A DNA stretch of 64,000 nucleotides from a virus. The stretch lies in IMG/VR virus record IMGVR_UViG_3300022839_000007, positions 62,001-126,000 of that record. One strand, given 5' to 3'. Under the pieces are notes generated by a model, which was not told where the DNA came from, did no database searches, and saw only the letters and a program-made list of their open reading frames with translations. How positions within the stretch are numbered: position 1 is the first letter of the stretch; each line of letters opens with the position of its first letter. Shown here one piece after another: positions 6,535 through 54,772 of this stretch. The position numbers were made by a program, and so were the translations under genes.

Positions 6535-6578
6535 GGGTTTTGTGGTCATAAGTACTATGTAATTAATTGGAGACTAGG

Positions 6579-7727
6579 TTGTCACTTATCAAATGTTTAC
6601 ACATTACAAAAGGTATGCGTATCTCTTTTAGAGAAATTTGCAATCAAGTATATTTTTTTAGAAAACCATGCTGTGAAATGCACACGTCGGATATGCCAGC
6701 TGATATATCTAAATTTGTCCCCTATGTGGATGTTACTAGTATTTTTTCTCACCCTACGATAAAATACTTTAATAGCTGGGTAAATACAGAAGAAATAATG
6801 CATCCTAGTTGCCAACCCTGCAAAATTAAAGAATCATTAGGTATACACAGTGCAAGGATGCAATCAAATCTACATACAGATGCACCGTATGACATATTAC
6901 TATTAGATGTTGTAATTGGAAATGCTTGTAATCTTGCTTGTCCATTTTGTGATAGTACTTCTAGTTCATTGATAAACAAAATTTCAAAAAAACAAAATAT
7001 TGCCGAGCTTCCTACAAATTGGAAGACAGCAACGCACAAGCTTGCTTCGTCTAACAGTATTTCTAAAATAATATCCGAGTTGTTAACAACATATAAAGTT
7101 AAACAGCTTAAATTAATAGGCGGCGAACCATTTTTAAAAGAAAATTGGGAATCAATTGGCAATATTTTAGATCAAGATTATTGTAAAGATCTTGAAATAT
7201 CAATTACCTCTAACGGAACGGTATTGAACAAAAGAATTCTACAGAGTCTAAAAAATACAAAAACTACCGAATTAAGAATTAGCGTAGACAGTATAGGAAG
7301 CAACTACGAATTTATTAGATGGCCGCATTCGTGGAAAAAGATGGAAGACAACTTAAATTTTTTAAAAAACAACACAGCTAATAATATTCAAATATCAGTA
7401 GCAAATTTAATTTCTGTTTTAAATTTTGAATTTCTTCCAGAGATCGAAGAATATTTTTCAAATTTGCCATTTTTTTGTGGATACAATTTTGACATTAAGC
7501 CAAAAACATCATTATTACATTATTCCAATATTCCAAATAATATAAAAATACAAGTTAGAGATCGAATTAAAAACAAAGATTTAAAAAAAATGATCGAACT
7601 CTATGAAACGGATGTAGACTCGGTACTAATTCAAAAACAATTTGAATTTTTTTTAAAACATAGAAAATTATCCACGGCTGCAAATGCAGTCGGTCCTATG
7701 ACTGCTAAATGGTTATCATTAACATGA
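6579..7727 (+). CDS. Radical SAM protein with N-terminal Cys (twitch-like) region
   Basis: About 382 residues. The start is taken as TTG 6579 because GGAG lies six bases upstream; a TTG 12 bases earlier overlaps that site. N-terminal Cys (KPCCEM, HPSCQPC) may hold an auxiliary cluster. The core motif is CNLACPFC and the SAM-binding stretch is LKLIGGEPFL. The layout matches the 3112 protein, with which it shares general architecture but not close sequence. Its stop overlaps the next start by ATGA. Confidence 0.78.
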   Translation: MSLIKCLHITKGMRISFREICNQVYFFRKPCCEMHTSDMPADISKFVPYVDVTSIFSHPTIKYFNSWVNTEEIMHPSCQPCKIKESLGIHSARMQSNLHTDAPYDILLLDVVIGNACNLACPFCDSTSSSLINKISKKQNIAELPTNWKTATHKLASSNSISKIISELLTTYKVKQLKLIGGEPFLKENWESIGNILDQDYCKDLEISITSNGTVLNKRILQSLKNTKTTELRISVDSIGSNYEFIRWPHSWKKMEDNLNFLKNNTANNIQISVANLISVLNFEFLPEIEEYFSNLPFFCGYNFDIKPKTSLLHYSNIPNNIKIQVRDRIKNKDLKKMIELYETDVDSVLIQKQFEFFLKHRKLSTAANAVGPMTAKWLSLT

Positions 7728-9721: not shown

Positions 9722-10541
9722 CAACTCAACTAGTCTATCTATTTTAATGAATCAAAACAAATTTGTAAATAAGTGGTTAGAGTTGTTATCAACATATAAT
9801 AATCAGATTCCTGGGCAGTACGAATACGATATACAAATATCTGGAATTGGCAGAGATTATGTAATTGATGAATTGTTAGAAGTAATGACAGAAATTAATA
9901 ATCATCATCCGCATACAATTCCTATTAATTATTTTCATCGGCATTTATCACATGTTGAATTAAGCGACATACACTTTATATATGAAAAAATTGAATCAGA
10001 TAATGTTTGGTTGTCAACTGGTAGACTTTCTTATAACTGCATCTGTTTTTACAAGTCCAAGTTGAATGATTTAATACACGAAATGGAAGCAATGTTAGGC
10101 AAGCGTACTACGCCGAGGGTGAGATTTAGGATTGTTGATCCTGTAACCAAAGTGCCTAACACATATAAACCAGAGTTAGATATTAGTGATTACAAATTAT
10201 TTGAACCAATTATACGCCCCTATGTTGTATATTTAAATTATAACGCAGTAGGTGAGGACTTTATAAAAACATTTAAATCTAACAGAGATCCAAGCACAGC
10301 GGTTCCGCTAACTAAATATAGTCCTAGTTTTTTCTTTGTAACACACGCGATTGATATACATTTGCAACAACATACCGTACTACAATGTAGAAAGTGGATG
10401 TTAAATGCAGGGTACAACAGCGAGGATTATAAAAACAGTTTTGGATATATTCCGTTAGGCGTAGTATTTAAAAATAGTTCCGATAACGATATTTCTACCA
10501 CTATCAAAACCTCTAAGCTAATCGGAGTTAACATTACATGA
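9693..10541 (+). CDS. Hypothetical protein linked to radical SAM genes
   Basis: About 282 residues, not recognised. The frame is open further upstream, but that part would lie entirely inside the previous gene; ATG 9693 (29-base overlap) or ATG 9714 are the sensible starts. It has no Cys motif, P-loop or membrane segment. Aromatic and His residues are common (NHHPHTIPINYFHRH). The 3' end overlaps the next radical SAM gene by 4 bases. It may be a substrate-binding or acceptor protein of the pathway, without proof. Confidence 0.6.
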   Translation: MADIIQLMFDNSTSLSILMNQNKFVNKWLELLSTYNNQIPGQYEYDIQISGIGRDYVIDELLEVMTEINNHHPHTIPINYFHRHLSHVELSDIHFIYEKIESDNVWLSTGRLSYNCICFYKSKLNDLIHEMEAMLGKRTTPRVRFRIVDPVTKVPNTYKPELDISDYKLFEPIIRPYVVYLNYNAVGEDFIKTFKSNRDPSTAVPLTKYSPSFFFVTHAIDIHLQQHTVLQCRKWMLNAGYNSEDYKNSFGYIPLGVVFKNSSDNDISTTIKTSKLIGVNIT

Positions 10542-11554
10542 AAATATTTCCAAAGTGCTTAACTGGAAAATTGCCACAAGTGACATATAATGGATATGTA
10601 ATGCCATGTTGCTGGGTTCCGTATACTAAAACAATATCTTACACTGATAATACAAATAAGGCAAATCCTTTTTTACATGACGATTTTAATCTATACAATA
10701 ATGATTTTAATAGTATTGTTGGAAGTGAAAAGTGGGTAAACATGTTGAACGATACATTTTATAAGGATGTAATTCCGTATAAATGTTCAGTGGCATGTAA
10801 GTCCTTTATTTTAGAAAATGGAAAAGTATCGTCGGCAAACTCACGTCAGCCAAAATTCTTTTTAGAAGAATCTAACATAACGTCGTATTGGAAAAAGCAA
10901 AGTGCGGACCGAGAAATTTTTAATAATAGTACAACACACCCAGCAGATATTGTTGAAGTAAATCTTGAAACTACTAGTAGATGTACACTACAATGTCCGT
11001 ACTGTTCGAGGACTATTGAAAAACATACTTATCAAAAAGGGGACTTAGATTTTGAGGTAGTTAAAAAGTTACTTTATGCACGAGATTGGAAAACAGTAGT
11101 AGATTGTCCTAGATACGGCGATCCAATATTTTACAAACACTTTTCGGATATGATGGATTTACTAAAGGATGCTCCGGTTAAAACTTATCGAATACACGTT
11201 TCTGCAACAGGACGCGGAACTTCCTGGTGGGATAATACTGTGAAACAATTCTTACAGTTAAAATCCTGTGGAACTAGAGTTGTTATTACATTCGGAATAG
11301 ACGGGCTTGCAGATACTTCTAAAATTCATAGAATTGGGCAAAACTGGGAAGAAATTATATATGCTTTAAAAAAATGTGCTGCGGCAGGAATTGAAACTAT
11401 ATGGCAATTTATACCGTTTAGTCATAACGAGCACCAGATTCAAGAAGCAAAGGAATTATCAAAACTGTTTAATGCAAAGTTTAAAATAGTAATAAGCAAC
11501 CGATTTAGTACAGTTGATAAGTTTAGACCACTTGACCCAGCGTTAAGTGTATAA
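10538..11554 (+). CDS. Radical SAM protein with N-terminal Cys region
   Basis: 338 residues. N-terminal Cys (FPKCLTG, MPCCWVPYT, YKCSVACKSF) resemble a twitch-like auxiliary cluster region. The core motif CTLQCPYC lies near residue 150. The usual GGEP block appears replaced by CPRYGDPIF, so the SAM-binding loop is divergent. It is the last gene before the only real gap in this operon, which holds a promoter-like site. Its target is unknown. Confidence 0.75.
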   Translation: MKIFPKCLTGKLPQVTYNGYVMPCCWVPYTKTISYTDNTNKANPFLHDDFNLYNNDFNSIVGSEKWVNMLNDTFYKDVIPYKCSVACKSFILENGKVSSANSRQPKFFLEESNITSYWKKQSADREIFNNSTTHPADIVEVNLETTSRCTLQCPYCSRTIEKHTYQKGDLDFEVVKKLLYARDWKTVVDCPRYGDPIFYKHFSDMMDLLKDAPVKTYRIHVSATGRGTSWWDNTVKQFLQLKSCGTRVVITFGIDGLADTSKIHRIGQNWEEIIYALKKCAAAGIETIWQFIPFSHNEHQIQEAKELSKLFNAKFKIVISNRFSTVDKFRPLDPALSV

Positions 11555-20613: not shown

Positions 20614-21891
20614 TTAGGCAGCGTCGTAATGCGCAGTAACTCCAAACGGCCCTTCGAGATTTTTATCACTGTTACTATGAATGATAAAGATAGTATCACA
20701 ATAATCTGGATCACCCCAAGAATTCCAAGCATATCCATCAGTAAACATAATGAACTTTTTAGGTACAATATCTTGATTCTTCATGTAAGTCCAGTTTGCC
20801 ATGAAGTCAGTGCCGCCACCGCCCATAATATGATATTCAGTAAGATCCGACCCGTTATCAGAACTAAAATCTTGTTCGTTATACACTTTGGTATCAAAGC
20901 ACCATAGTTTAATTTTATAGTCTTGATACTCGTCCATAATACCTTTAATTTCACCAAGGAAGTCGGCTGCCTGTTCGTTACCAATACTACCGCTCATATC
21001 CAAGCAGATACACAAGTCAATTGTATCCTGGAATGACATTCCAGGCAAAATTGCTCCGCTCATTTGTCCTCTACGGCTAGGGCGAGAAAATGTATAATCA
21101 CTTTTGATAGTGCTCTGAATTTGTTGACGAAGTAGCTCACGCCAGTTCATCTTTGACTCGGACATTTCTTTAATCATACGCTGAATACCAGCAGGTACAT
21201 TACCAGCGCCTGCTGCACTAGCTGCTTGAATCATAGCTTCTTTGATCTCGTCTCTAATTTGATCAAGTTCTGCCTTACTATAAGTAGGACGTCCGGACCC
21301 GTCGCTATTTTTAACTTCGCCGTCTTCGCCCTCGAGGTCAAGATGCTCGTCAAGCATTTCGCCAAGTGCATCAATTGCACTTTGACCATTTTTGTCTTTC
21401 TCTTTTTTTAGGTCGTCGTATACTTCTTCGCTTGCCCAGCCACGGTACTTAAAATCTTGATAGCAATCAACGATGCGAGGCTTACGTCCAATACGGTCAT
21501 CTACTAGTAAATTGTTTACAATATAGTCAGCTGCAATGTTATACAATCGAGGGTCTCGAGAGTCGCGACGCCCAAGATGATTGTAAACCATATGTAAAAT
21601 TTCGTGTGCAACTACAAATTCAACTTCTTTGTTATCCATTGCATTAAAAAATTGCGTATTGTAGAACAAATGGCGACCGTCGACTGCCGCAGTAGGAAGC
21701 CAATCGTCTGCGGCCCGAATCTTCAAACGAGTTGCCATGTTTCCAAAAAACGGATGCCGTAGTAGCAATCCTACTCGGGCAGTAATAATACGCTCCTGAA
21801 CCTCAACTTGCATCTTTGCAAGTTGTTCAGGAGTAATGTTAGGATCGGGCTTCCAGCCACGTGTGGTGCTTGCAGTCTTTTTACTAGACAT
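20614..21891 (-). CDS. Metallopeptidase-like protein with C-terminal VWA domain
   Basis: 425 residues. N-terminal VVAHEILHMVYNHLG near residue 95 is a HExxHxxxxH zinc-metallopeptidase site. A charged linker follows and then, from about residue 275, a VWA domain with CICLDMSGSIGNEQ (MIDAS DxSxS) and FTDG. Such VWA proteins partner with MoxR-type AAA+ ATPases, and one is encoded just upstream. The pair may act as a chaperone or metal-insertase on a phage or host complex. Promoter-like and terminator elements flank the gene. Confidence 0.78.
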   Translation of the reverse strand: MSSKKTASTTRGWKPDPNITPEQLAKMQVEVQERIITARVGLLLRHPFFGNMATRLKIRAADDWLPTAAVDGRHLFYNTQFFNAMDNKEVEFVVAHEILHMVYNHLGRRDSRDPRLYNIAADYIVNNLLVDDRIGRKPRIVDCYQDFKYRGWASEEVYDDLKKEKDKNGQSAIDALGEMLDEHLDLEGEDGEVKNSDGSGRPTYSKAELDQIRDEIKEAMIQAASAAGAGNVPAGIQRMIKEMSESKMNWRELLRQQIQSTIKSDYTFSRPSRRGQMSGAILPGMSFQDTIDLCICLDMSGSIGNEQAADFLGEIKGIMDEYQDYKIKLWCFDTKVYNEQDFSSDNGSDLTEYHIMGGGGTDFMANWTYMKNQDIVPKKFIMFTDGYAWNSWGDPDYCDTIFIIHSNSDKNLEGPFGVTAHYDAA

Positions 21892-21923
21892 TGTATAACC
21901 TCATTGTTTGTTGCTAATATAGT

Positions 21924-21952
21924 AATGTAACATCATTTACTTAATAAGTCAA
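21924..21952 (-). promoter_or_regulatory. Sigma70-like promoter before VWA gene
   Basis: Minus-strand TTGACT, 17 bases, TACATT. The -10 element is imperfect. It lies in the 108-base gap between the MoxR and VWA genes, so the VWA gene may have its own start site. Confidence 0.35.
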
Positions 21953-21965
21953 CTTGTATATAGGA

Positions 21966-21994
21966 TAGCGGGCATTTTTTAAAAATGCCCGCTA
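21966..21994 (-). terminator. 14-bp palindrome after MoxR gene, probable terminator
   Basis: TAGCGGGCATTTTT pairs perfectly with AAAAATGCCCGCTA around one base. It lies six bases past the MoxR stop. The inner A/T run would give a U-rich strand within the stem for either direction. Confidence 0.6.
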
Positions 21995-21999
21995 ACATC

Positions 22000-23082
22000 T
22001 TATGCCGACTGTGCGGCTTTGATATACTTGCCGAACCGCTCGTGGAATTCGTCAAAACATTCAACTGCATCCGGATCAATTGGCAAGCTATATTGAGTAA
22101 GAGCCAACTTAATGCCCATCACAACCAACTCAGTGTCAAAGTTATCCATTGCAAACCGCAAAAAGTTATTCACCTTAGAATCAAACTTCTTGTCGTTTGC
22201 ATCACTTGCTGCCTTAAGCTCGTAACACAACGAAACAGTCAAGGAGTACATAGCACTGATCTCTTTGCTCTTCATCTCCTTAACACGCCCTGCTAGGATC
22301 TCACTCGGATCGGGCATCATCGAAGCAATTTTGCGGTGTGCCATAAACTTAACAGCTAGCCCTTCGCCCACTGCACCTGCAACCAAGTCGGTAGTAGTTG
22401 TCGAATCTACATTATCGTCTAGGAGATCGCTAACAAAACTCCAGCTACGAGGAGTAGCAAAGCTACGGCTCGAACTCTTTGGATCAAAATCATAAAGATC
22501 TTGTTTTGCAAATTGCAAGTAGCCTACTACGTCTTGGTGTACCTTGTTGTTAACAGCCCAGCCAAACCAGTCGTCAAAGTTAACAGCTAACTCCAAGTGG
22601 ATAAATCGGTTTGCAAGCGGCGCTGGCATGCGGTACGTTACGCCCTTATCTGCTTCTCTGTTACCAGCAGCAACAATCATTACATTGTCCGGCAGCTTGT
22701 ATGTACCAACACGCCGGTTCAATGTAAGCTGATAAGCCGCAGCTTGTACAGCGGGTGCTGCCGAGTTCATCTCGTCTAGAAACAATACAATGTGGTCGTA
22801 TTTTGCTGCCATTTCAGCGTTTGGCAATTCGCTAGGCGCACCCCAAACCATAGTGCCCTGGCTAGGATCGTAATACGGAATACCTTTGATGTCAGTAGGT
22901 TCCCAGAGGCTCAGTCGGATATCAATCAAATGACTATTGCTAAAGCTATCGCAAATTTGTGCAACAATGTCGGATTTACCAACGCCTGGAGGGCCCCATA
23001 GGAATACAGGACGTTTCTTTTTCATAGCAACCCGAAGGCTGTTCTTTGCTTTGCTAGGGCTAAGGGTACGTGCATCAGACAT
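22000..23082 (-). CDS. MoxR-family AAA+ ATPase
   Basis: 360 residues. WGPPGVGKSDIV near residue 30 is Walker A, IVLFLDEMNSA near 97 Walker B, and VAAGNREAD the sensor 1 region. This matches MoxR-type ATPases, which remodel complexes with VWA-domain partners. The VWA-metallopeptidase gene follows after a palindrome, supporting a two-component machine. ATG has an AAGGAAA site. It has its own sigma70-like promoter upstream, so it is probably expressed early. Confidence 0.85.
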   Translation of the reverse strand: MSDARTLSPSKAKNSLRVAMKKKRPVFLWGPPGVGKSDIVAQICDSFSNSHLIDIRLSLWEPTDIKGIPYYDPSQGTMVWGAPSELPNAEMAAKYDHIVLFLDEMNSAAPAVQAAAYQLTLNRRVGTYKLPDNVMIVAAGNREADKGVTYRMPAPLANRFIHLELAVNFDDWFGWAVNNKVHQDVVGYLQFAKQDLYDFDPKSSSRSFATPRSWSFVSDLLDDNVDSTTTTDLVAGAVGEGLAVKFMAHRKIASMMPDPSEILAGRVKEMKSKEISAMYSLTVSLCYELKAASDANDKKFDSKVNNFLRFAMDNFDTELVVMGIKLALTQYSLPIDPDAVECFDEFHERFGKYIKAAQSA

Positions 23083-31101: not shown

Positions 31102-32847
31102 TCATTGTCGACTATTTTTTTGGTATATAAATGTAAGATTTCCTGAATCCCATATCCTATACAGTCCGTTGTTGTTCATATTTTGGGATTCGGTCAACTT
31201 TGCATCAAAAAATTGTAGTTGTTGCTGCAATTTATGTTTTTGGTATTGAATTCTATTTTGCATCCTACCATTGACTATGTACCAATAGTTTGGAGAAGTG
31301 GTGTGCAGAAATTTTAAATTGGTTTTGTGATATACTCCTCCGACTGAATACCTGCGATTAGCATAGGTTACGAAAGAGTCGTGCGGCTGGTGCTTGAATA
31401 TTTTGCTTGCACCTCCGGTTATTTGCATTCCTTTTTTGCTGCATAATCGTAACAGTTCAGTATTTACATTTTTAGAAAATCTTGATTTGCCGTAAGTTGC
31501 CAACAATACCAACTTATCTTGATAAAACAGTCCGTATTGATCCGATGATCCAATAGTACCACTTAGGTGATTTTGATCTAGAAACACTGTTGCTGTACTT
31601 TTTTGTACTGACCTAAATGTCGTATTTCGAGCACCGATTACTTCTTGATAAATTCCTAATCTAGACAGTATCATGCTTTTCCAAATAGAGTTTTTAATCA
31701 AGTCGTTCCATTCAGTGTCCCAAACATGCAGTAACTGAATGCCTTTTTCTTCGCATAGAACTGTTTTGTTCAAGTGGTAGTTTTTATTCTTTCCATGCTG
31801 CTCAGTGTGCCAATATACTCCATTAAATTCAATAGCCAAGTTATGATGTGGCATATAAAGATCTAGTTCTACGCCATTGAGTACACATCGATCACGATGT
31901 ATTGTTTCGATGCCGTTGTCCTCTAAAAACTGTTTGATCTCTAGTTCGCCTACTGACGTTCCGATCTTAACTTCTTTAAACGGCAGCTGATAGCGATCAG
32001 TGATATTAGTTATCACAGCCAACGAAACATTAGTCTCTTTGGCTAATGCTGTTCTCAACGCCGGGGTTTCTTTATTCTTGATATGATCAATTACATATTG
32101 ATATTGAGCTTGGTAATTTTTGTCTTTGCTGTTCTGTATTTTTTCAATCACACTTGCTAGTTGAGTCGAATGTTCAACTCCGTACTTGCTAAGTGTGCGT
32201 TGTCTTTTCTTTTGTTTGACCGATTGCGTTTTTTGTGGATGGCATCCGTATTTTTCGTCAAATGTCTTATGACGTGCGCTCTTCAGTTCTTCTGACTTTG
32301 ATTTTAACGTACTACTAATTTTTTGCTTTGTTTCTTCGAGGTGGACTGCATTGTCCACTCCGTATTTGTATAAGCAAGTTTCTTTAGCAAGACTTCTATT
32401 ATTATATACAGCATCGCCGTATTTTTTTAATTTAGTCTCGGCTCTTTTGGTCTTGCTAGTGTTGTCATTCCTTGAACACTGTATACTACAATGCTCTGAA
32501 AAAGTCTTGGTTGAGGAGTTAAAATACCTCACAGGATTGCCACAAATTTTACAACAAGGTACTACTATGTTATTTATTATGCAATGTATTGCAACTGACG
32601 TTTTTAAATTTGGAAATTCGATTGCAATACTATCTTTTATTTCTTGCGAAAGTATCTTTGTGATATTAGGATTGAGCTTTTTATTGTTAGTAAAAAGATT
32701 AGGGATACGAGTTAACGCATCCCTAATTTGCTTAATACTTGTTTTTTGATACGTGGTCTCTATATCGAGCGTCGTTTCGGTTCCATTGTTCGCCGGTGCC
32801 TTGCATGATGTCGATGCATCTATCAATGGTTTTACTGGTCCAGTCAC
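31102..32847 (-). CDS. Free-standing Vsr-like (EDxHD-type) homing endonuclease
   Basis: 581 residues. A zinc-finger-like CCKICGN...HCSIQC region near 95-125 is followed by repeated KYGV(D/E) motifs, as in DNA-recognition repeats of phage endonucleases. A core near 300-370 has SVGELEIKQFL, ELDLYMP and AIEFNGVYWHTE, matching the Vsr-like fold of EDxHD homing endonucleases. GTG 32847 with AGGAG six bases upstream is a good start and lies inside the glycosyltransferase gene, so 116 bases are read in two frames. It is probably mobile. Confidence 0.75.
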   Translation of the reverse strand: MTGPVKPLIDASTSCKAPANNGTETTLDIETTYQKTSIKQIRDALTRIPNLFTNNKKLNPNITKILSQEIKDSIAIEFPNLKTSVAIHCIINNIVVPCCKICGNPVRYFNSSTKTFSEHCSIQCSRNDNTSKTKRAETKLKKYGDAVYNNRSLAKETCLYKYGVDNAVHLEETKQKISSTLKSKSEELKSARHKTFDEKYGCHPQKTQSVKQKKRQRTLSKYGVEHSTQLASVIEKIQNSKDKNYQAQYQYVIDHIKNKETPALRTALAKETNVSLAVITNITDRYQLPFKEVKIGTSVGELEIKQFLEDNGIETIHRDRCVLNGVELDLYMPHHNLAIEFNGVYWHTEQHGKNKNYHLNKTVLCEEKGIQLLHVWDTEWNDLIKNSIWKSMILSRLGIYQEVIGARNTTFRSVQKSTATVFLDQNHLSGTIGSSDQYGLFYQDKLVLLATYGKSRFSKNVNTELLRLCSKKGMQITGGASKIFKHQPHDSFVTYANRRYSVGGVYHKTNLKFLHTTSPNYWYIVNGRMQNRIQYQKHKLQQQLQFFDAKLTESQNMNNNGLYRIWDSGNLTFIYQKNSRQ

Positions 32848-39805: not shown

Positions 39806-40882
39806 TTACCAACTAAACAAATTGCTAAATGTATTATGACGTTTAGTACTTTCTAAGTCGTAGTTTAGCACACCAATTAAGTTGTCTAATTTATTATCAA
39901 TAATTACTTCTTCCATTGCACTGTCGTCAAATGGCAATTCCTTAAACCATGCCGGCATACGCATTTCGTCAGTAGGATATGCAACGCTAGTAAATCCCAA
40001 CGGATTAGCTTTAACTTTACAAACGATTACTTTCATTCCGTCGACAATTTCTTGAGAATAACGATCGCCGTTCATTCTTTTAAGTGTGTTCCAGTTAATG
40101 CTTGCTCTAACATGTCCTGGCATGTTTGCCTTGCCTTGTTTTTCTTCCAGTCGCTGATAGTGCAAAATATTGTTTGCACGTTTAGGAGATCCCTTTTCGT
40201 ATCCAGGCCGATCTTTAAATTCTTTACGAAATTCAGTGATTGCATCTAGAATATCACTCTCGTTGGCTTTTTGTAAAACCATCATCAATAAAGTGCTAAG
40301 GAAAGTTTGCATAAACAAAGGAGTGTCCGATCTCTTGAGATCTAACCCCATAGCTTTAACTTTACCGGGTTTTCCGTCGACGTCTTTTCTATGTCCTTCA
40401 ACATCAATAACCAGTGCAGCATATCGTTTTTTAGTAATGAACAACCCGGTTTCTGCAACAATTTCTCGTCCAGCTGCAATAACGTCGGACCTAGACTTAG
40501 GGCAATGAAATGCTTGTGCCATAAATTTTTCAAACGTTGTATTTGCTTGATCAGCAACTTGATCATATAGTTTAATGGCGTTTTCTTTATTCCACGGAAC
40601 TTTTCCTGCTGCTACATCGTCTTTTATCATCGGCCATGCACTGAAATATACCGAGTTATGTATTAGGATGTTGTTAGCAAAGAACCAGGGCTGGTCGCTA
40701 TTTTTCATTCCTATATCATATACATATTCGTCGTTGGCTTTTCGAACTTTAGTAACTCTTTTAACTTTGCTTCGAGATAGACTTAGTTTTTTAGATCCAA
40801 CCTCATTGAGAAATTCCTTTACTGCAAAAGCAACTTCCTCTTTAGTTGTTGCTGATAATATCTTGATTAAGTTATCTTTCAT
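39806..40882 (-). CDS. 43: DNA polymerase part C: intein C-half plus thumb domain
   Basis: 358 residues. Residues 1-76 are the C-half of an intein: VYDIGMKNSDQPWFFANN fits block F and ILIHN followed by Ser fits block G and the +1 residue. Residues 77-358 continue gp43 after motif C (SVYFSAWPMIKDD, TKKRYAALVIDVEG) to a C-terminal FSNLFSW, like the clamp-binding peptide of RB69 gp43. After trans-splicing it would join PolB. The ATG has no strong ribosome site; a 3-codon mini-frame (ATG GTA GAA TGA) abuts it. Confidence 0.9.
   Translation of the reverse strand: MKDNLIKILSATTKEEVAFAVKEFLNEVGSKKLSLSRSKVKRVTKVRKANDEYVYDIGMKNSDQPWFFANNILIHNSVYFSAWPMIKDDVAAGKVPWNKENAIKLYDQVADQANTTFEKFMAQAFHCPKSRSDVIAAGREIVAETGLFITKKRYAALVIDVEGHRKDVDGKPGKVKAMGLDLKRSDTPLFMQTFLSTLLMMVLQKANESDILDAITEFRKEFKDRPGYEKGSPKRANNILHYQRLEEKQGKANMPGHVRASINWNTLKRMNGDRYSQEIVDGMKVIVCKVKANPLGFTSVAYPTDEMRMPAWFKELPFDDSAMEEVIIDNKLDNLIGVLNYDLESTKRHNTFSNLFSW
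40655..40882 (-). other. Split intein C-half (Int-C)
   Basis: 76 residues at the start of PolC. The last residues HN followed by Ser are the hallmarks of the C-terminal splice junction. The minimal Int-C core begins about residue 38; the first 37 residues are a charged extension (MKDNLIKILSATTKEEVAFA then KEFLNEVG) of unknown role, perhaps for association with Int-N. Confidence 0.85.
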
Positions 40883-40916
40883 TCATTCTACCATTTTAAT
40901 ATCTGTTGTTCTACTA

Positions 40917-40946
40917 GGTTAGTATTTGCTGTGTAGTGGACTAACC
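40917..40946 (-). other. Hairpin in the gap between intein halves
   Basis: In the 109-base gap, GGTTAGT and ACTAACC form a 7-bp stem with a 16-base loop. No ORF of the size of an endonuclease is present in the gap. It may affect translation of PolC. Confidence 0.35.
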
Positions 40947-40991
40947 CGCTTTTTTGCCGTTACGTTTGATTGTTTAATAATAAAATTTAAA

Positions 40992-41521
40992 TCATACCTG
41001 ATAAATGTTAAGTGTTATTATAATGTCGTCTTCATTAATTTCCAGAGGCTTAACTTCTATTAATTCGCCATTGCGTTCGATCATTACTGAATGATCTTCG
41101 GTTACGATAACTATATTGCCTTCTGAATCCTCGATTTCGTATAAGTCTTTGGAGACTTTGTGGCGATACACATAATTAATATGTCCCATATATGGTTCGT
41201 CTCTTTCTTTATCGTATGACATTACCATTACATCGTCGTCGTGTGCGTATTCCTTATCTCCGTTGTTGGTTTTAATTTCCAGTCTATTGAATAAGCTTTC
41301 GATAGTCATATTTCCTATTGAGGTCTCGATTAGTGAATTTGCTTCACAAGAATCTGTATCTCCGTAGATTACAGCTTTTCCTACATGATCGTATTCGCCT
41401 GTAATAATTTTATTAACTTCGGCACTCATATGCTTAACAATCTGCCTACCACTAAGAGTAGTACTCTGTCCAATTCTTTTATCAAAGAATCTGCATCCTG
41501 GGTTTAAGATAGCACCATACA
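40992..41521 (-). CDS. 43: DNA polymerase part B, exon 2: motif B to motif C plus intein N-half
   Basis: With exon 1 it makes a 239-residue protein (190 + 530 bases = 240 codons). It begins TG TAT GGT, which after splicing to the final T of exon 1 restores Leu-Tyr-Gly of motif B (KKINLNS|LYGA). KAVIYGDTDS is motif C with the catalytic Asp pair. The next 118 residues, from CEANSLIETSIG to NIYQV, are an intein N-half ended by a natural stop. The polymerase active site is thus completed only after splicing. Confidence 0.9.
40995..41348 (-). other. Split intein N-half (Int-N)
   Basis: 118 residues starting with Cys1 right after YGDTDS. CEANSLIETSIG fits block A and VIVTEDHSVMIER fits block B with the TxxH motif. 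It ends NEDDIIITLNIYQV at a stop codon. Insertion after the DTDS of motif C is the site known as pol-c in archaeal family-B polymerases. Confidence 0.87.
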
Positions 41522-41773
41522 CATTGATGTTCAGTTAGAATCGTTAATTCCAACCCGCCTTGCGGCTGCTGCATGTTACCATGCAGATCAGACTATATCA
41601 CCATCTGTGTTAACACAGATGTTCCCCGTTTCCACTCACTTGAGTGTACGTCTTTCGACTAGTCGTTGAACCTTCCTAACGCATTAGGCTTGGCTGCTGA
41701 TTGTCCTTATTGGAGTTTCCAGCAATTAGAGGAATTATTCGACCATTGTTGCCAATGGAAGTCGCAGTACTTT
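41522..41773 (-). ncRNA. Group I intron in DNA polymerase gene (subgroup IA2-like)
   Basis: 252 nt without ORF. Core elements in order on the minus strand: AATTGCTGGAAACTCC (P), AATCAGCAGCCAAGCC (Q), GTTCAACGACTAGTCG (R) and GATATAGTCTG (S); GACTA/TAGTC can form P7. P1 can form from 5'-exon UCGU with internal guide GCGA, giving the U-G pair at the splice site, and the intron ends in G. P2 (CCATTG-GCAA-CAATGG) and P9 (CTGCATG-GTAA-CATGCAG) are hairpins with GNRA loops. Removal joins exons in frame at NS|LYG. Confidence 0.92.
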
Positions 41774-41963
41774 ACGAGTTTAGGTTAATCTTCTTGACTA
41801 GTTGGCGTTTATCCCAAAACGTTATTTGATCTAGTATGTAGTCCTTGTCATTAGAAACGACCTTGTTATCCTTGATTTTTAAATTATGATTATCAAGGTA
41901 CAGCGCAATCTTTTTTGGATCAGCGTCGCTAATTAGTTGTTTAAGTTTTTTAATATCTATCAT
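41774..41963 (-). CDS. 43: DNA polymerase part B, exon 1
   Basis: 63 codons plus one base. AGGAG precedes ATG 41963. The segment runs MIDIKKLKQLISDADPKK to FWDKRQLVKKINLNS, the conserved run into motif B of gp43 (KxxxNSLYG). Unspliced, it would hit TAA directly at the intron edge. The start separates it from PolA by 59 bases, so PolB is its own polypeptide. The N-terminal 40 residues correspond to the fingers region and may serve as the interface with PolA. Confidence 0.88.
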
Positions 41964-42022
41964 TGGTATTCTCCTTTAAATATCTAAAAAGATACGGTTC
42001 ATTTTTTCTCTCCGGAGATAGT

Positions 42023-43861
42023 TCATTTATCATTTATTGTATACTTTTTAATATCTTCAGCTAACGTAGGATCAATATTAATGCCAGAATTAAGTTCTGT
42101 CCATAGCTCTAGCATACCCTGAAGCTCTTTACGCTCGCTGTACCATCTCTTAAGAAGTCCGGGAATTACTGCTTCAAATTCGTGTGTGAATATAGTTCCG
42201 TTCGCACTAAGCATCCACGGAGTATTACTATCAAAAATCATATTATAAATTTCAGCAGCACTAAGCACGTCTTGACGCCCGTCTTCCCAATTGACGTGTA
42301 ATGCAATGTCTTTACGTTGTTCCATTACAGCTTCGTATTCTTCAGTAGCAAATCTTCCTTCCCAACTTGCAGCAAAACTCATTTTCTTAAGAGTTATATC
42401 GTCGTGTACTCGTGCTTCGCTAATATGTGGAACAATTTGTCCTATGATACTTTCTGGTGCCATATTCATGCTACGAATCACACTAGGATACAATGAGTTA
42501 AGATCCATACTACCTATCCATTCGTGTAATCCCTTTTTAGGAACCGCGACATATGCACCAGCAGCTTGTGTACTATCGCCGTTATTTTTTCTATTAGGAA
42601 CTTGCATACCTCTTCGATGTGCTTCGTTGATAATTGCTTGTTCAGTTAGTGCTACTGCACCTGCAGTAGTTTGTAGTAATACTGTATTTTCGTGAGCAAG
42701 GACGTTTGCTAAATCAATAAATTTTAGTTTTTTATCTAATTTATCTAGTAACGCAACGTCTTGTCTATTATATTCAATAAATTTTTCAAAATCATTATTG
42801 TATAACTGATCCAATGTACCTTCGTATATTGTTTTGTTCTCGCCTACTTCCATCTCTCCAATTGCATCAAGTCGATAGCTATGACGTTCCTCGTAAGTGT
42901 ATTTGCGATATAAGTTAAGATAATCAAGATGTACTCTTCCGATAGTATCGTAGGTTATGCTAGTTTTTCCGTATTTTTCAAACTCGCGTTTTTTAGGCAA
43001 TTGCCCCCATAAACAGAAGCGTCTAGTATCGTCATTGCTCAATACACGTTTGATACGATTAACAGTATAAGGAACGTCGTACCCTTCGGAATTCCATCCA
43101 CTATGTACATCGGCATCTTCAATTAAGTCTAGAAACATCTGTAACATAGCACGTTCGCCATTACCTTCTGAATCGTTAGGAAACAATATACATTCTTCGC
43201 CCCATCGTTCCTTACATATTGCTTGTGCTTTTTCAAACGGTAATCCTTTAGGAGGCATAGCAACTGTAACTAATAAATCTAACCATTGCAAGTATACAGT
43301 AATAGCAGTAATTGGCATAAATGGATCGTCAGTTGGTGCAAAGCCTCTGCCGGCTTTTAAGTAATCACACCCTGAAATTTGCTTCCACTTTTTTTCTTTG
43401 TGGTTCCATACTTCGTATAGATGCGCATCGGTAATACGCGAAAGTGCATCGACATTTGTATCAATATCTATAACTGTTGACTTTTTTCTAATTTTTACCT
43501 TGTAATCCCTAGGGTACTCAAACGGATCAAAGTCAGTTTCGATATCCCAAAATGCTACATTAAGTTTAGGAGCATCCTGATTAAGATAGTGTTCGCTTAG
43601 GCATTGAAATATTGGATTTACATCAGACTCAAATAATACGTTGCCTTTGTTAATAGCAACTTCTTTTCTATAATCTTTTGTATTTTTACACACAATACGG
43701 CTTAGAGTGTCTCCAAAAATACTCTTGTACTTTCCTCTAGCGTCTTTGTAATAAAATGTATATTTTGCTTGGTATTCTTGATAAATTCGTTTACCTTCCT
43801 TGCGTTCGACTATGTTAATAGTATCGCTGTCCCGGTTAAAGAAGCTGTCAATGTAGGGCAT
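42023..43861 (-). CDS. 43: DNA polymerase part A: N-terminal, exonuclease and motif A
   Basis: 612 residues from ATG 43861 (AAGGAGAG upstream; the TTG 18 bases earlier overlaps that site). VAFWDIETDFDPF near 105 is Exo I, VHSGWNSEGYDVPYTVNR Exo II and YNRQDVALLDKLD Exo III. DLNSLYPSVIRSMN near 450 is palm motif A. It stops at KKYTINDK before motif B. So it has proofreading and half the palm but no complete active site. Split gp43A/gp43B polymerases are known in Aeromonas T4-like phages. Confidence 0.92.
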   Translation of the reverse strand: MPYIDSFFNRDSDTINIVERKEGKRIYQEYQAKYTFYYKDARGKYKSIFGDTLSRIVCKNTKDYRKEVAINKGNVLFESDVNPIFQCLSEHYLNQDAPKLNVAFWDIETDFDPFEYPRDYKVKIRKKSTVIDIDTNVDALSRITDAHLYEVWNHKEKKWKQISGCDYLKAGRGFAPTDDPFMPITAITVYLQWLDLLVTVAMPPKGLPFEKAQAICKERWGEECILFPNDSEGNGERAMLQMFLDLIEDADVHSGWNSEGYDVPYTVNRIKRVLSNDDTRRFCLWGQLPKKREFEKYGKTSITYDTIGRVHLDYLNLYRKYTYEERHSYRLDAIGEMEVGENKTIYEGTLDQLYNNDFEKFIEYNRQDVALLDKLDKKLKFIDLANVLAHENTVLLQTTAGAVALTEQAIINEAHRRGMQVPNRKNNGDSTQAAGAYVAVPKKGLHEWIGSMDLNSLYPSVIRSMNMAPESIIGQIVPHISEARVHDDITLKKMSFAASWEGRFATEEYEAVMEQRKDIALHVNWEDGRQDVLSAAEIYNMIFDSNTPWMLSANGTIFTHEFEAVIPGLLKRWYSERKELQGMLELWTELNSGINIDPTLAEDIKKYTINDK

Positions 43862-50557: not shown

Positions 50558-51265
50558 CTATTTATCAATATCTTCTTTGTATACTAACTTGTCAATACGA
50601 CATATGTTACCGCCTATTATTAGTTGTAGTAACATAATGATATTCTCGTCTCTCACATACACATATTGTCCGTTAATCCATTTTGCACCTTCTTGCAAAT
50701 TTCTCATTAGGACATCGCCAACTTTAATTTTATCTCGGTTGTGTTTGATCCATTCTGCAAAAGAAGGACTAGCTGGCTTATTTCCAAATGATACTTTATA
50801 TGGATAATCAGTTGGACTGTTGACAACAATAACGTTCTTATTATTACTAAGAAAGTCAATGGTTCTTAGGTCAGGTTTCCATAACTCAATTATCTTGGTA
50901 TTTATTTTATTAATAATGTTTTCTAATGTAAAGAGATTATTTCCGTATATTGTTAATGAATCACGTTCGCATCGTAGCGAGAACTCGCTACGATTTACTA
51001 GGATTAATTCTTGATATATAGTAGTTGCATCCGAGAGGTCCTCGAGAGGTACAGTAACGTTGGCCCGGCTTCTTCTTATTACCGGTAATATCTTACGTTC
51101 AAGATTTTCGTTATAATATTCTAATCTCTCATTAACATAATCAAGGGTTGTTACTTTGCTTGATGTATTTCTAAAAATTATTGCTAGCTGATTCTTTAGC
51201 TTTAGTTTATACAAATATTTTCCGTAATGTAGAAACTTAGTTTCTCGCAGTTTTAATTTTGTCAT
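50558..51265 (-). CDS. Conserved hypothetical protein
   Basis: 235 residues. KLKLRETKFLHYGKYLYKL at the start; ELILVNRSEFSLRCERDSLT in the middle; KVGDVLMRNLQEGAKWINGQ later. Mixed alpha/beta, no catalytic motif. It overlaps ClpA by 29 bases, so it is coupled to it. It may be a virion or assembly factor. Function unknown. Confidence 0.62.
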   Translation of the reverse strand: MTKLKLRETKFLHYGKYLYKLKLKNQLAIIFRNTSSKVTTLDYVNERLEYYNENLERKILPVIRRSRANVTVPLEDLSDATTIYQELILVNRSEFSLRCERDSLTIYGNNLFTLENIINKINTKIIELWKPDLRTIDFLSNNKNVIVVNSPTDYPYKVSFGNKPASPSFAEWIKHNRDKIKVGDVLMRNLQEGAKWINGQYVYVRDENIIMLLQLIIGGNICRIDKLVYKEDIDK

Positions 51266-53486
51266 GTGTTACTTCTAATACAATTTCATTTTCTGATACG
51301 TTAATAACTACAGTACCTCCTAGCTTCAAGTCGCCAAACAGCATTGCTCTTGATAACGGACGTTTAATGTCGTTATCAATTACACGCTGCAATGGTCTAG
51401 CACCCATTTTATTATCAAACCCCTTTTCTACTAAATAGTCAAGTGCTTCGTCTGCAATGGAAATCTTAATTCCTTTGTCCTTAACTTGATCACGTAGTTC
51501 TGCAAGAAAGCTTCCTACAATTTTTAGCATTACTGGTTTGCTAAGTTTAGAAAACGTAACAATAGCATCTAATCTATTACGAAATTCCGGAGCAAAGAAC
51601 TTTTTAAGTTCTGTATCTGCGTAATCCTTGCTTGCACTTTCACCAAACCCAATTGTGTTCTTTTCAGAATCTCTTGCACCTAGATTTGTAGTAAGAATTA
51701 GTACACAGTTACGAGCATCTGCTTCTTTACCGTTTGATCCAGTTACCTTGCCGTTGTCCATTAATTGTAATAATATTGAACTTACATCAGGGTGTGCCTT
51801 TTCAATCTCGTCGAGCAGTAGTACACAATTAGGATTTTCTTGTAATTTGACTATTAGTTGTCCAGCATTGTCATCGAACCCGACATAGCCCGGAGGCGAC
51901 CCAATTAGCTTGGCTACAGAATGTTTTTCCATGTATTCAGACATATCAAATCGTACAAGCGGTACGCCCAGATGCTTTGCTAATTGCTTTGCTGCATGAG
52001 TCTTACCAACTCCGGTAGGCCCCATAAACACAAAACTTCCAATAGGCTTATTTGCACTTTTAAGTCCGGCTTGTGCAACTAGAACCTTATCTACAATTGC
52101 GTCAATTGCAGTGTCCTGTCCGTATACACTACCTTTAAGATTTTTCTCAAGACTAGCAAGATTTTCAGTTTCTTGTTCTGCAACTTGCTCTTGGGGGATC
52201 TTAATCATTCGAGATAATTCATACTGAATATTTTTTTCAGTAATAATCTTATCAGTTTCTTGATCGCGTACTTTAAATCGGCTACATGCAACATCAATAA
52301 GATCAATTGCTTTATCAGGAAGCTTTTTATCTGTCTGATACTTGATGCTAAGTTTTACCGCAGCCTCAATTGCAGAATCTTTTATCTCGACTGTGTGAAA
52401 GTCTTCGTAGTACTTTCGTATTCCGTACAGAATTTCTACAGTCATTGCAGCAGACGGTTCGTCGATAGTTACACGCTGGAATCTGCGCATCAGCGCTCGG
52501 TCTTTTTCAAAGAACTTACGGTACTCGTCCCACGTAGTAGCAGCTATTACTTTAATATTGCCTTTTGCAAGCGCAGGTTTAAGCATATTTGCAAGGTCAT
52601 TTGAACTATTTTGTCCGCCTGCTCCTGCACCGCTAATCATATGAGCTTCGTCGATGAACAGAATAGTCTTACCTTTGTTCTGTAACGCTTGCAATACCAG
52701 TTTGAATCTTTCTTCAAAGTCTCCACGGTATTTTGAACCAGCTAACATACTTCCGATATCCAACGAGTATACGGTATAGTCCTTAAGAAATGTAGGCACG
52801 TCGCCGTGTACAATTTTATAAGCAAGCCCTTCAACTACTGCGGTTTTGCCTACTCCTGGATCTCCTACCATCAGCGCATTACTTTTGCTACGTCTTCCTA
52901 ATGCAAGAGCCACCTGTTCAATCTCGTCATGGCGTCCAATTACTGGATCAATTTTGTTAAGAGAGGCGAGGTGATTGAGATCTTCGGTAAATGCGCGAAG
53001 TGCTTTATTTGCAGCACCGCCGTTCTCGGCTTCCTCTGGTTCTTGATTTAAATCCATTTCTGGGTGATGATATCGTGTGTATGTATCTTTATCAATTCCA
53101 GACTGCTGTGTTACAAAATAAGCATAACTACGTTTTTCATTGAGGATGCTTATTAGCACATCGCTTGTAGTAATTTGCTCTCTTCCTTGAAATAACACCT
53201 GTGCAAAAGCACGGTTAAGTACTCGTTCTACAGTTTGCGTTTTTTTAGGCTTATATTTTTCAAGATCTGTTTTAATATCATCACACTTGGTTTTAAGATA
53301 ATTATCAAGGGCGGATGTCATTAGTACAGGATCAATGCCGTAATCTGTGATATCTTTTACAAAGGTGTCTTCAAAAAGCATTGCATATAGCAAATGTTCA
53401 AGTGTTACATATTCGTGTTGTAATTTTTTGGCATTATTAACTGCTTTATCAAAGACTGATTGCAGTTCTGTACTAGGTTCTACCAT
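51237..53486 (-). CDS. clpA: ClpA-like AAA+ unfoldase
   Basis: 749 residues. An N-terminal Clp repeat domain (HEYVTLEHLLYAMLFEDTF) is followed by a first ATPase domain with GDPGVGKTAVVEG and a second with GPTGVGKTHAAKQL, Walker B LLLDEIEKAHPD. NTIGFGES before FFAPEFRNRLD sits where ClpA has its IGL/F loop that docks ClpP, so interaction with host ClpP is likely. It could redirect host proteolysis. It overlaps the peptide deformylase gene. Confidence 0.9.
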   Translation of the reverse strand: MVEPSTELQSVFDKAVNNAKKLQHEYVTLEHLLYAMLFEDTFVKDITDYGIDPVLMTSALDNYLKTKCDDIKTDLEKYKPKKTQTVERVLNRAFAQVLFQGREQITTSDVLISILNEKRSYAYFVTQQSGIDKDTYTRYHHPEMDLNQEPEEAENGGAANKALRAFTEDLNHLASLNKIDPVIGRHDEIEQVALALGRRSKSNALMVGDPGVGKTAVVEGLAYKIVHGDVPTFLKDYTVYSLDIGSMLAGSKYRGDFEERFKLVLQALQNKGKTILFIDEAHMISGAGAGGQNSSNDLANMLKPALAKGNIKVIAATTWDEYRKFFEKDRALMRRFQRVTIDEPSAAMTVEILYGIRKYYEDFHTVEIKDSAIEAAVKLSIKYQTDKKLPDKAIDLIDVACSRFKVRDQETDKIITEKNIQYELSRMIKIPQEQVAEQETENLASLEKNLKGSVYGQDTAIDAIVDKVLVAQAGLKSANKPIGSFVFMGPTGVGKTHAAKQLAKHLGVPLVRFDMSEYMEKHSVAKLIGSPPGYVGFDDNAGQLIVKLQENPNCVLLLDEIEKAHPDVSSILLQLMDNGKVTGSNGKEADARNCVLILTTNLGARDSEKNTIGFGESASKDYADTELKKFFAPEFRNRLDAIVTFSKLSKPVMLKIVGSFLAELRDQVKDKGIKISIADEALDYLVEKGFDNKMGARPLQRVIDNDIKRPLSRAMLFGDLKLGGTVVINVSENEIVLEVTHDKIKTARN

Positions 53487-54006
53487 ATTTAATCCTTTTT
53501 GTTCGGGCTGTTTGTGCTGTTTGTGCTATTTTTAACTTTAGTTTACTGACTCGATCAACAAATTGTATGCCCTGAAGGTGATCGTATTCATGTAAAAAGC
53601 AACGAGCGTCGATGTCGTCATACGTTGCATCTACACTTATAACACTATTATAGTCACTTGTCAACGTATCAAATTCCACATTGATGCTATTTGGACGTTT
53701 TATACTTAGAAATAAATCAGTATGACTAAGGCACCCCTCAGGGCCTAATTCTATTTGTTTGCTAACACTTTTAACAACAGGATTTATTACAACTGTGACA
53801 TTTCCGTACTGTTTGTTTAATACGGTTCTCATAACAAATATCTGATACGGAAGCCCTACTTGATTTGCGCTTAATCCTAGACCGCCTAATTCATGCATTA
53901 AGTTTGTCATCTGTAGGGCAATACTTGCTATGTCAACTTGAGTAGTGTCTACACGCGGCAGAGCAGTTGCAAGTAATATATTAGGCGATTTTATTAATGT
54001 CATCAT
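53473..54006 (-). CDS. def: Peptide deformylase
   Basis: 177 residues. GGLGLSANQVGLP (motif 1), GPEGCLSHTDLF (motif 2) and FLHEYDHLQGIQF (HExxH, motif 3) are all present. It removes the formyl group from new proteins' N-termini. Phage copies are known in cyanophages, where they favour host or phage protein turnover. Its end overlaps the ClpA start and its start overlaps DnaJ, one proteostasis unit. Confidence 0.92.
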   Translation of the reverse strand: MMTLIKSPNILLATALPRVDTTQVDIASIALQMTNLMHELGGLGLSANQVGLPYQIFVMRTVLNKQYGNVTVVINPVVKSVSKQIELGPEGCLSHTDLFLSIKRPNSINVEFDTLTSDYNSVISVDATYDDIDARCFLHEYDHLQGIQFVDRVSKLKLKIAQTAQTARTKRIKYGRT

Positions 54007-54772
54007 TAATAGATTGTATCCTTGTTAACAAGTCGTTATCGGTAATAATAGGAGTGATACATTTAATTTTTACATACAAGTTACCAAATTTACCAGACCT
54101 CGGATCTAAAAGACCGTACCCGGCAATATTTAATATTGTATCGGCTTGCGTACTCTTAGGTATGTTAACACGAAGGACGCCGGATGTCAACTGGTCTATG
54201 TTAACTACAGTTCCTAAAATTAAATCAAACATTTTTAAATTAATAGTAGTTACTAAATGAATACCGTCTCGTTTAAATATAGGATGATCAACAACTTTTA
54301 CATGTACTAACAAATTACCCGGTGTTTGCTGGGCATAGTGGTTGTCTCCAAGCCCTCTAAACTTTAAAACTTCGCCGTGTAATACTCCGGCATGTATTTT
54401 TATATTTGCAGTAGCTATATTGTTACTTCTCATAGCATACGAAACTGTAATATCTTTTCCGTTGGCAACATCCTCTAGAGTTATTACAACTTGCAATCTA
54501 ACATCTGCGTTACGCTGTCGCGGATCGCTTCCAAAGAATTGGGAAAATATGTCTTCAAATTGTGTATCTGAAGAAATTGGTTTGCTAACCTGATCGTATT
54601 TGGCCCGTGTTTCTGGATTTTTTAATATCTGATAAGCTTCGTTAATACTTGAAAATACATTCTTCTCGCCCCCTTTATCGGGGTGATGCATCTTAGCTAA
54701 AGACTTGTAGGCTTGTCTAATTTCGTGCTGAGTTGCAGTGCTTGATATTCCTAAAGTCGTATAATGTTTCAT
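53981..54772 (-). CDS. dnaJ: DnaJ-like co-chaperone (zinc finger absent)
   Basis: 263 residues. YTTLGISSTATQHEIRQAYK and MHHPDKGG contain the J-domain with HPD. No CxxCxGxG repeats exist, so it is of CbpA type. C-terminal substrate-binding beta domains follow (ADVRLQVVITLEDVANGKDI). It would stimulate host DnaK. AATAAATA ends five bases before ATG 54772, without a Shine-Dalgarno. Confidence 0.88.
   Translation of the reverse strand: MKHYTTLGISSTATQHEIRQAYKSLAKMHHPDKGGEKNVFSSINEAYQILKNPETRAKYDQVSKPISSDTQFEDIFSQFFGSDPRQRNADVRLQVVITLEDVANGKDITVSYAMRSNNIATANIKIHAGVLHGEVLKFRGLGDNHYAQQTPGNLLVHVKVVDHPIFKRDGIHLVTTINLKMFDLILGTVVNIDQLTSGVLRVNIPKSTQADTILNIAGYGLLDPRSGKFGNLYVKIKCITPIITDNDLLTRIQSINDDINKIA

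What the first reader, a model, noticed from the sequence alone, without database searches (positions are those of the whole stretch)
41522..41773. 252-nt group I intron exactly in polymerase motif B
P/Q/R/S-like elements, GNRA hairpins, a U-G splice pair and terminal G are all visible, and removal restores NS|LYG in frame. The same codon region is a known intein site (pol-b) in archaeal polymerases, so three mobile-type interruptions hit catalytic motifs of one gene.
Basis: partly seen in the sequence, partly recalled or inferred. Interest (0 to 1): 0.8.

Follow-up and report, generated by a model that had tools for sequence, protein, structure and literature searches.

The report
Mini group I intron in phage polymerase
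A bacterial virus's DNA polymerase gene is cut by a 252-base self-splicing RNA intron at a catalytic motif, and the same gene is also broken in two and carries a split protein intron; the intron is a known kind, but its neighbours show how it moved as part of a larger cassette and then lost the enzymes that spread it.

Summary
41773-41522 (minus strand) is a 252-nt, ORF-less, T4-type group I intron (RF00028, 95.4 bits, E 2.5e-23). It starts after the first base of the codon following NS in polymerase motif B and ends in G. All 80 intronless relatives first fetched continue in frame across the join. Ten introns at this exact site keep 95.9% of 74 modelled pairs, and 41 pairs show double changes, including P1 and P10. 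The gene stays under strong purifying selection.

It is not unique or new in kind. At least 16 other viral contigs carry an intron at this site, and Aeromonas phage 25 has the same 43A-endonuclease-43B+intron layout with its intron about five codons downstream.

New here: (1) the intron travelled as one cassette with the fingers fracture and exon 1 (98% identity, against about 71% in surrounding exteins); (2) the endonuclease slot in the fracture is a deletion scar; (3) the polymerase also holds a split intein at YGDTD|S, with a decayed endonuclease relic between its halves. A working enzyme would need RNA splicing, protein trans-splicing and non-covalent assembly. Splicing was not tested. The fracture is in the fingers, not in a catalytic motif.

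The parts
42023..43861 (-). Polymerase fragment A (612 aa): exonuclease, palm part, motif A (SMDLNSLYPS), first side of fingers
   Evidence: PHROG 262/2062 E<1e-104, Pfam DNA_pol_B and exo1; pS 0.77, pN 0.10 against L015
42026..42115 (-). A-tail extension (MLELWTELNSGINIDPTLAEDIKKYTINDK): one side of a foreign long fingers tip; 5' edge of the transferred cassette near 42117
   Evidence: absent from short-fingered intact relatives, homologous across split relatives, identity to L129 jumps to 96% here
41974..42012 (-). Scar of a deleted HNH-type homing endonuclease gene between A and B (relic frame ..PERKNEPYLFRYLK)
   Evidence: 37/39 nt identical to the start of the 397-aa ORF in L129; ~1,075 bp missing between 6-bp repeats TTAAAG
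41971..41977 (-). Ribosome binding site AAAGGAG of fragment B
   Evidence: sequence, 7 nt before ATG 41963
41774..41963 (-). Fragment B exon 1 (63 codons + 1 nt): B-head (fingers tip) and WDKRQLVKKINLNS
   Evidence: 178/190 nt identical to L129, the last 15 codons with 0 synonymous differences
41522..41773 (-). Group I intron, 252 nt, no ORF, motif B phase-1 insertion (NS T|TG YG)
   Evidence: RF00028 95.4 bits; covariation; 247/252 identical to L100/L129
41762..41777 (-). P1: exon UCGU (41777-41774) pairs with IGS GCGA (41765-41762), U.G at the 5' splice site
   Evidence: 10/10 pair; L096 has GCGU/GCGC, a compensatory change
41767..41769 (-). P10 partner in the intron (UAC), pairs with exon 2 GUA at 41520-41518
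   Evidence: L104 has UAU/AUA, compensatory
41591..41664 (-). P7 (41664-41660 GACUA with 41595-41591 UAGUC), enclosing P7.1, P7.2, P3' and P8
   Evidence: P7 invariant in 10/10; flanking helices covary
41352..41521 (-). Fragment B exon 2 extein, LYGAILNPG...YGDTD (motifs B and C)
   Evidence: pS 0.75, pN 0.03 against L015; 0.767 synonymous divergence from L100
40995..41351 (-). IntN half of a split intein (SCEANSLIETS...VTEDHS), stop at 40994-40992
   Evidence: Pfam Intein_splicing E 3.5e-8, just under its cut-off; L003 has the same intein unbroken
40883..40991 (-). Decayed relic of an EDxHD-like endonuclease gene between the intein halves
   Evidence: aligned to the L100 relic, with a further internal deletion and a W-to-stop change
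40655..40882 (-). IntC half of the split intein (...FFANNILIHN)
   Evidence: 90% nt identity to L100, separate ORF
39806..40654 (-). Polymerase C-terminal part (SVYFSAWP...)
   Evidence: PHROG 1918 E 7.6e-44; pS 0.81, pN 0.08 against L015

Best explanation
41773-41522 is an ORF-less, T4-type (IA2-like) group I intron that should splice itself out of the mRNA of polymerase fragment B. Guanosine attacks after the exon U paired to the IGS G (P1); the exon is then joined to the base after the terminal G, with P10 aligning exon 2, restoring NSLYG. The intron did not enter alone. It is the 3' end of a cassette made of one side of a long fingers tip, a slot for a homing endonuclease, the other side of the tip with exon 1, and the intron. 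This cassette was copied into a short-fingered polymerase, most likely by endonuclease-driven repair (collaborative homing); the endonuclease was later deleted. The enzyme is then completed by a split intein that joins fragment B to C, while fragment A should associate without a covalent bond. Shown: intron structure, borders, covariation, purifying selection, cassette identity, both endonuclease relics. Inferred: splicing, homing, trans-splicing, assembly.
For: RF00028 95.4 bits. In-frame join in 80/80 relatives. 95.9% of 735 cells paired, 41/74 pairs with double changes (shuffles 22.0, 0/500; slid 3-8), including P1 and P10. No other PolB in the record, and all pieces under purifying selection, so splicing must work if the virus replicates with its own polymerase. 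Cassette: 96%, 94% and 98% nt identity to L129 in A-tail, exon 1 and intron, against 71% (A), 78% (exon 2) and 71% (C, against L100); synonymous divergence 0.145 in A-tail plus exon 1 against 0.77-0.81 in exteins. Endonuclease slot: full ORFs in L129, L089, L107, L113, L114, L126; scar here and in L104/L134.
Against: No transcript data. The endonuclease families rest on weak profile scores (NUMOD3 E 0.0017; Vsr E 5.9e-6, just under its cut-off) and motifs read by eye. No cleavage target is known. Two relatives (L096, L109) have the intron without the fracture, and L148 and L154 the fracture without the intron, so the cassette is not obligatory.
Confidence: 0.88

Rival explanations
1. The intron has lost splicing activity and the polymerase is a dying or dispensable gene, replaced by another polymerase.
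For: All three elements have lost their endonucleases; TAA follows directly at the 5' splice site, so unspliced RNA gives only a 63-aa product.
Against: Strong purifying selection in A, exon 2 and C; no second PolB in the record; every core helix intact and P1/P10 matched to the local exons.
Confidence: 0.04
2. The high identity of intron and exon 1 to L129 reflects functional constraint and vertical descent, not transfer of a cassette.
For: Group I cores are conserved, and exon 1 holds the IGS partner.
Against: Introns at the same site in contigs other than the L100/L129 group are only 73-80% identical; synonymous sites are also nearly identical in the cassette and saturated just outside; edges are sharp; the backbone is nearer to intronless, short-fingered L015.
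Confidence: 0.08
3. The intron entered motif B by reverse splicing, independently of any endonuclease.
For: ORF-less intron; L096 and L109 have it in an unbroken gene.
Against: Reverse splicing would not carry exon 1 and the fingers tip along; endonuclease ORFs sit in the fracture in most split intron carriers.
Confidence: 0.12
4. Fracture, intron and split intein are assembly errors.
For: The record is a virus record from IMG/VR that may be incomplete.
Against: The same architecture occurs in L100, L108, L117, L129 and, in part, in many other contigs, and in cultured Aeromonas phage 25.
Confidence: 0.01

Closest known systems
Aeromonas phage 25 gene 43 (43A - homing endonuclease - 43B with group IA2 intron; Petrov, Ratnayaka and Karam 2010, cited in PMC2988022 and PMC2993671)
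   Same: PolB gene broken upstream of motif B, endonuclease in the break, ORF-less intron in fragment B at motif B
   Different: Its intron lies after LYGAL, about 5 codons downstream; its endonuclease is GIY-YIG and still present; no intein seen; 64.2 bits for RF00028
T4 nrdB intron and relatives
   Same: T4-type group I core, 77.9% nt identity over the aligned pieces
   Different: different host gene; carries an I-TevIII relic inside the intron
Pseudomonas phage 201phi2-1 RNA polymerase beta intron
   Same: 72.4% nt identity over 83% of the intron
   Different: different host gene
SPO1 and Bastille-like phage DNA polymerase introns
   Same: group I introns in a phage DNA polymerase at a conserved site (PMC2814812, PMC11878797)
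   Different: DNA polymerase I-type gene, often with intron-encoded endonucleases, longer introns (mean 802 bases in Bastillevirinae)
Fractured genes with split inteins and a new endonuclease family (Dassa et al. 2009; paper not held, known by citation and from own knowledge)
   Same: split intein halves on neighbouring genes with an endonuclease gene or relic between them
   Different: host gene here is PolB, with a group I intron in the same fragment
Nanoarchaeum equitans split PolB intein (pol-c, position III; PMC549080)
   Same: split intein in motif C of a PolB
   Different: insertion here is YGDTD|S, two codons downstream of YGD|TDS; phage gene with adjacent halves

Membership tests
Group I intron (RF00028) | conserved core P3-P9 recognised by a covariance model | tested here: met
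   95.4 bits, full model 1-253
Group I intron (RF00028) | P1 with U.G at the 5' splice site | tested here: met
   UCGU/GCGA, U.G in 10/10, compensatory change in L096
Group I intron (RF00028) | intron ends in G; P10 aligns exon 2 | tested here: met
   G at 41522; P10 93.3% paired, compensatory change in L104
Group I intron (RF00028) | P7 guanosine-binding helix | tested here: met
   5 bp invariant in 10/10
Group I intron (RF00028) | self-splicing activity | not testable with these tools
   needs RNA
Subgroup IA2 (T4-type) | P7.1 and P7.2 hairpins between P7 and P3' | tested here: met
   both present, with covariation; no subgroup-specific model was run
Mobile group I intron | homing endonuclease in the intron or acting on its site | tested here: not met
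   no ORF in the intron; neighbouring endonuclease deleted here; neither neighbour type found elsewhere in the record (no positive control). L129 has one in the slot
Split intein | nucleophile at position 1, TxxH block, terminal HN, +1 nucleophile, on separate ORFs | tested here: met
   S1, TEDH, IHN, +1 S by inspection; Intein_splicing E 3.5e-8, score 33.8 under cut-off 35.8
Split intein | trans-splicing activity | not testable with these tools
   needs protein
Collaborative homing | free-standing endonuclease that cuts the intron insertion site | not testable with these tools
   candidates in L129, L107 and others; target unknown

The most novel reading that the evidence does not exclude
The fracture is itself a working part of a composite mobile element: a landing slot in the polymerase fingers in which unrelated endonucleases (HNH-like, Vsr/EDxHD-like, GIY-YIG in phage 25) succeed each other and each mobilises the ORF-less intron downstream, dragging the fingers tip of the donor polymerase along, so that homing swaps a structural domain of a replicative enzyme between viruses.
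Probability: 0.35. Interest if true: 0.65.

Novelty: new variant of a known kind. Interest (0 to 1): 0.5.

Why it matters
Taken alone the intron is one more T4-type intron in a polymerase gene. Together with its relatives it gives a graded series: intact, split without intron, split with endonuclease and intron, and split with the endonuclease deleted. In such a series the collaborative homing model can be tested directly. One replicative polymerase would need RNA splicing, protein trans-splicing and subunit assembly. All endonucleases are gone from the locus while the parts needed for a working enzyme persist, which illustrates why such elements outlive their drive. It also warns annotators: the ORF 40992-41522 seems to start with a GTG that is really the last base of the intron plus exon 2.

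Tried and rejected
The first frame choice in the fracture alignment was wrong, corrected. The first IntN synonymous estimate was out of frame, corrected. The phage JSE gene 43 intron reported in PMC2993671 gave no RF00028 match in the region searched. AlphaFold of an intact long-fingered relative gave a poor whole model (pTM 0.38); only the local secondary structure around the fingers tip was used, with caution. The papers of Dassa 2009 and Petrov 2010 are not held or not found, so their details rest on citations. A literature check of the archaeal pol-b site found nothing. A dead intron, an artefact, and vertical descent were considered and set aside. The association of fracture with intron (9 of 11 distinct intron carriers split, 2 of 140 without an intron split) is not an unbiased count, because intron and B-head were used as search queries.

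Full report
WHAT IS THERE. On the minus strand the window holds a family B DNA polymerase in pieces. Fragment A (43861-42023) has the exonuclease and motif A. Fragment B starts at ATG 41963 and reads ...WDKRQLVKKINLNS, then a stop. At 41773-41522 lies a group I intron: cmscan gives RF00028 at 95.4 bits, E 2.5e-23, over the full model, and no other copy in the 157,788-bp virus record. After the intron comes LYGAILNPG...YGDTD, then the N half of an intein (41351-40995). A separate ORF (40882-39806) starts with the C half of the intein and ends the polymerase.

BORDERS. In 80 of 80 relatives found by protein similarity to exon 2, the residue before the site (S63) is followed directly and in frame by the residue after it. 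The intron therefore sits after the first base of the Leu codon in NSLYG. It starts with AA and ends with ATG, as do nine other distinct introns at the same place.

STRUCTURE. A structure written from the RF00028 alignment and the intron's own helices (P1, P2, P3, P4, P5, P6, P6a, P7, P7.1, P7.2, P8, P9, P9.1, P9.2, P10) was counted on ten aligned introns. 95.9% of cells pair, against 33-43% when partners are slid by 1-3 columns; 41 of 74 pairs have changes on both sides (shuffles 22.0, none of 500 as high). RNAalifold on its own finds most of the same helices. Two pairs tie the intron to its exons. In L096 the exon reads GCGU and the guide GCGC, where others read UCGU and GCGA. In L104 exon 2 reads AUA and the intron UAU, where most others read GUA and UAC. 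Because the structure was derived in part from the window sequence, the percentage paired is biased upward; the double changes are not explained by that. P7.1 and P7.2 place it with T4-type IA2 introns; the closest cultured introns (T4 nrdB, Acinetobacter phage YMC13/03/R2096, 201phi2-1 RNA polymerase) share 72-80% of aligned bases.

THE GENE IS ALIVE. Against L015 the synonymous and non-synonymous proportions of differences are 0.77 and 0.10 in A, 0.75 and 0.03 in exon 2, 0.81 and 0.08 in C. There is no other PolB in the record. The record may be incomplete, so a second polymerase elsewhere is not excluded.

HOW COMMON. A DNA pattern joining the intron core to LYGA found 56 contigs. Sixteen of these (L089, L090, L096, L100, L104, L107, L108, L109, L113, L114, L117, L122, L126, L129, L134, L136) hold a PolB intron at this exact site. 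L169 and L172, found later, add two. T4-like polymerases in other contigs appear to have an intron just before NSLYG (by reading), and Aeromonas phage 25 has one after LYGAL. Motif B is thus hit at three or more positions.

THE FRACTURE. Short-fingered intact relatives read ...SERKDLQKMLKKAKDAKNEAEIEYWDKRQ... without a break. In the window A ends with a 30-residue tail and B starts with a 48-residue head. Both are homologous among split relatives, and both have counterparts, joined, in a sister group of intact, intronless, long-fingered polymerases (L144-L147, L149-L152, L155, L177). So the break lies in the fingers tip. A weak AlphaFold model of one of these shows two long helices with a small tip domain, and a loop between the A-tail and B-head counterparts (the whole model is poor, only local pLDDT of 80-90 at the tip supports this).

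THE SLOT. In L129, L089, L107, L113, L114, L126 and others, an ORF of 330-397 aa sits between A and B. Two kinds occur: one with an HNH-like motif (HHILP..LTGR.HFIAHW; NUMOD3 E 0.0017) and one Vsr-like (PF03852 E 5.9e-6). Phage 25 has a GIY-YIG gene (motif by reading) in the corresponding place. In the window only a scar is left: 37 of 39 bases match the start of the L129 ORF, and about 1,075 bp are missing between two copies of TTAAAG. L104 and L134 lack the ORF in a background 98.5-98.9% identical to L126, an independent loss, or less likely a gain in L126.

THE CASSETTE. Identity of the window to L129/L100 is 71% in A, then 96% from the A-tail, 94% in exon 1, 98% in the intron, and then falls to 78% in exon 2 and 71% in C. 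The edges are sharp at about 42117 and just after the intron. Synonymous divergence is 0/9 sites in the 15 codons before the intron, 0.145 for A-tail plus exon 1, and 0.77-0.81 outside. The backbone is closer to L015 (76-77%). The simplest reading is gene conversion of one unit: fingers tip, endonuclease slot, exon 1 and intron. Direction and mechanism are inferred.

THE INTEIN. The intein shows its own excess of identity to L100 (88% and 90% nt; synonymous 0.24-0.30) between saturated exteins, so it moved separately. L003 has it unbroken; L007, L010-L013, L096 and L109 have an intact EDxHD-like ORF between the halves (motif by reading; profile support is weak); L100 has a C-terminal relic, and the window a further decayed one. 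Two insertion sites exist in this family, YGDTD|S (window, L003, L004, L100) and YGD|TDS (L107, L109 and others); the second is the classical pol-c site (PMC549080).

KNOWN OR NEW. A group I intron in gene 43, a broken gene 43 and an endonuclease in the break are all known from phage 25 (PMC2988022, PMC2993671). Introns in phage DNA polymerases are common in other groups (PMC11878797). I found no report of a group I intron and a split intein in the same polymerase, but the two most relevant papers are not held. I rate the intron itself a new member, and the locus a new variant, of a known kind.

CONTEXT. The polymerase is most like those of PA5oct-like jumbo phages among cultured phages (44% aa identity). 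The host is unknown.

Noticed in passing
window 31102-32847 (-): 581-aa free-standing endonuclease-like protein (DUF7487 plus weak Vsr/MTES_1575 match; PHROG 3339 homing endonuclease), about 7 kb 3' of the polymerase pieces.
   Followed up: partly
L009:2813-3930: This relative's polymerase has about 1.1 kb of extra sequence at the exonuclease motif NSEGYD, a further interruption site in the same gene family.
   Followed up: no
L083, L084, L087, L093, L098, L103, L116, L121, L131, L135: T4-like polymerases whose introns appear to end just before NSLYG, a different insertion point in the same motif.
   Followed up: partly
L088, L091, L094, L097, L106, L112, L118, L124, L127, L132, L138: Group I introns ahead of a (F)LYGAGDxKIG-type exon, which looks like a family A polymerase, in many viral contigs.
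   Followed up: no
window 40992-41522 (-): Mechanical ORF calling starts this ORF at GTG made of the last intron base and exon 2; a gene finder would likely mis-annotate it.
   Followed up: yes
window 3112-4509, 6567-7727, 10538-11554 (+): Several radical SAM proteins in one region of a phage genome.
   Followed up: no
window 20614-23082 (-): DUF2201 metallopeptidase/VWA protein next to an AAA-type ATPase, a MoxR-VWA-like pair.
   Followed up: no
window 51237-54772 (-): ATP-dependent protease next to a DnaJ-like protein.
   Followed up: no
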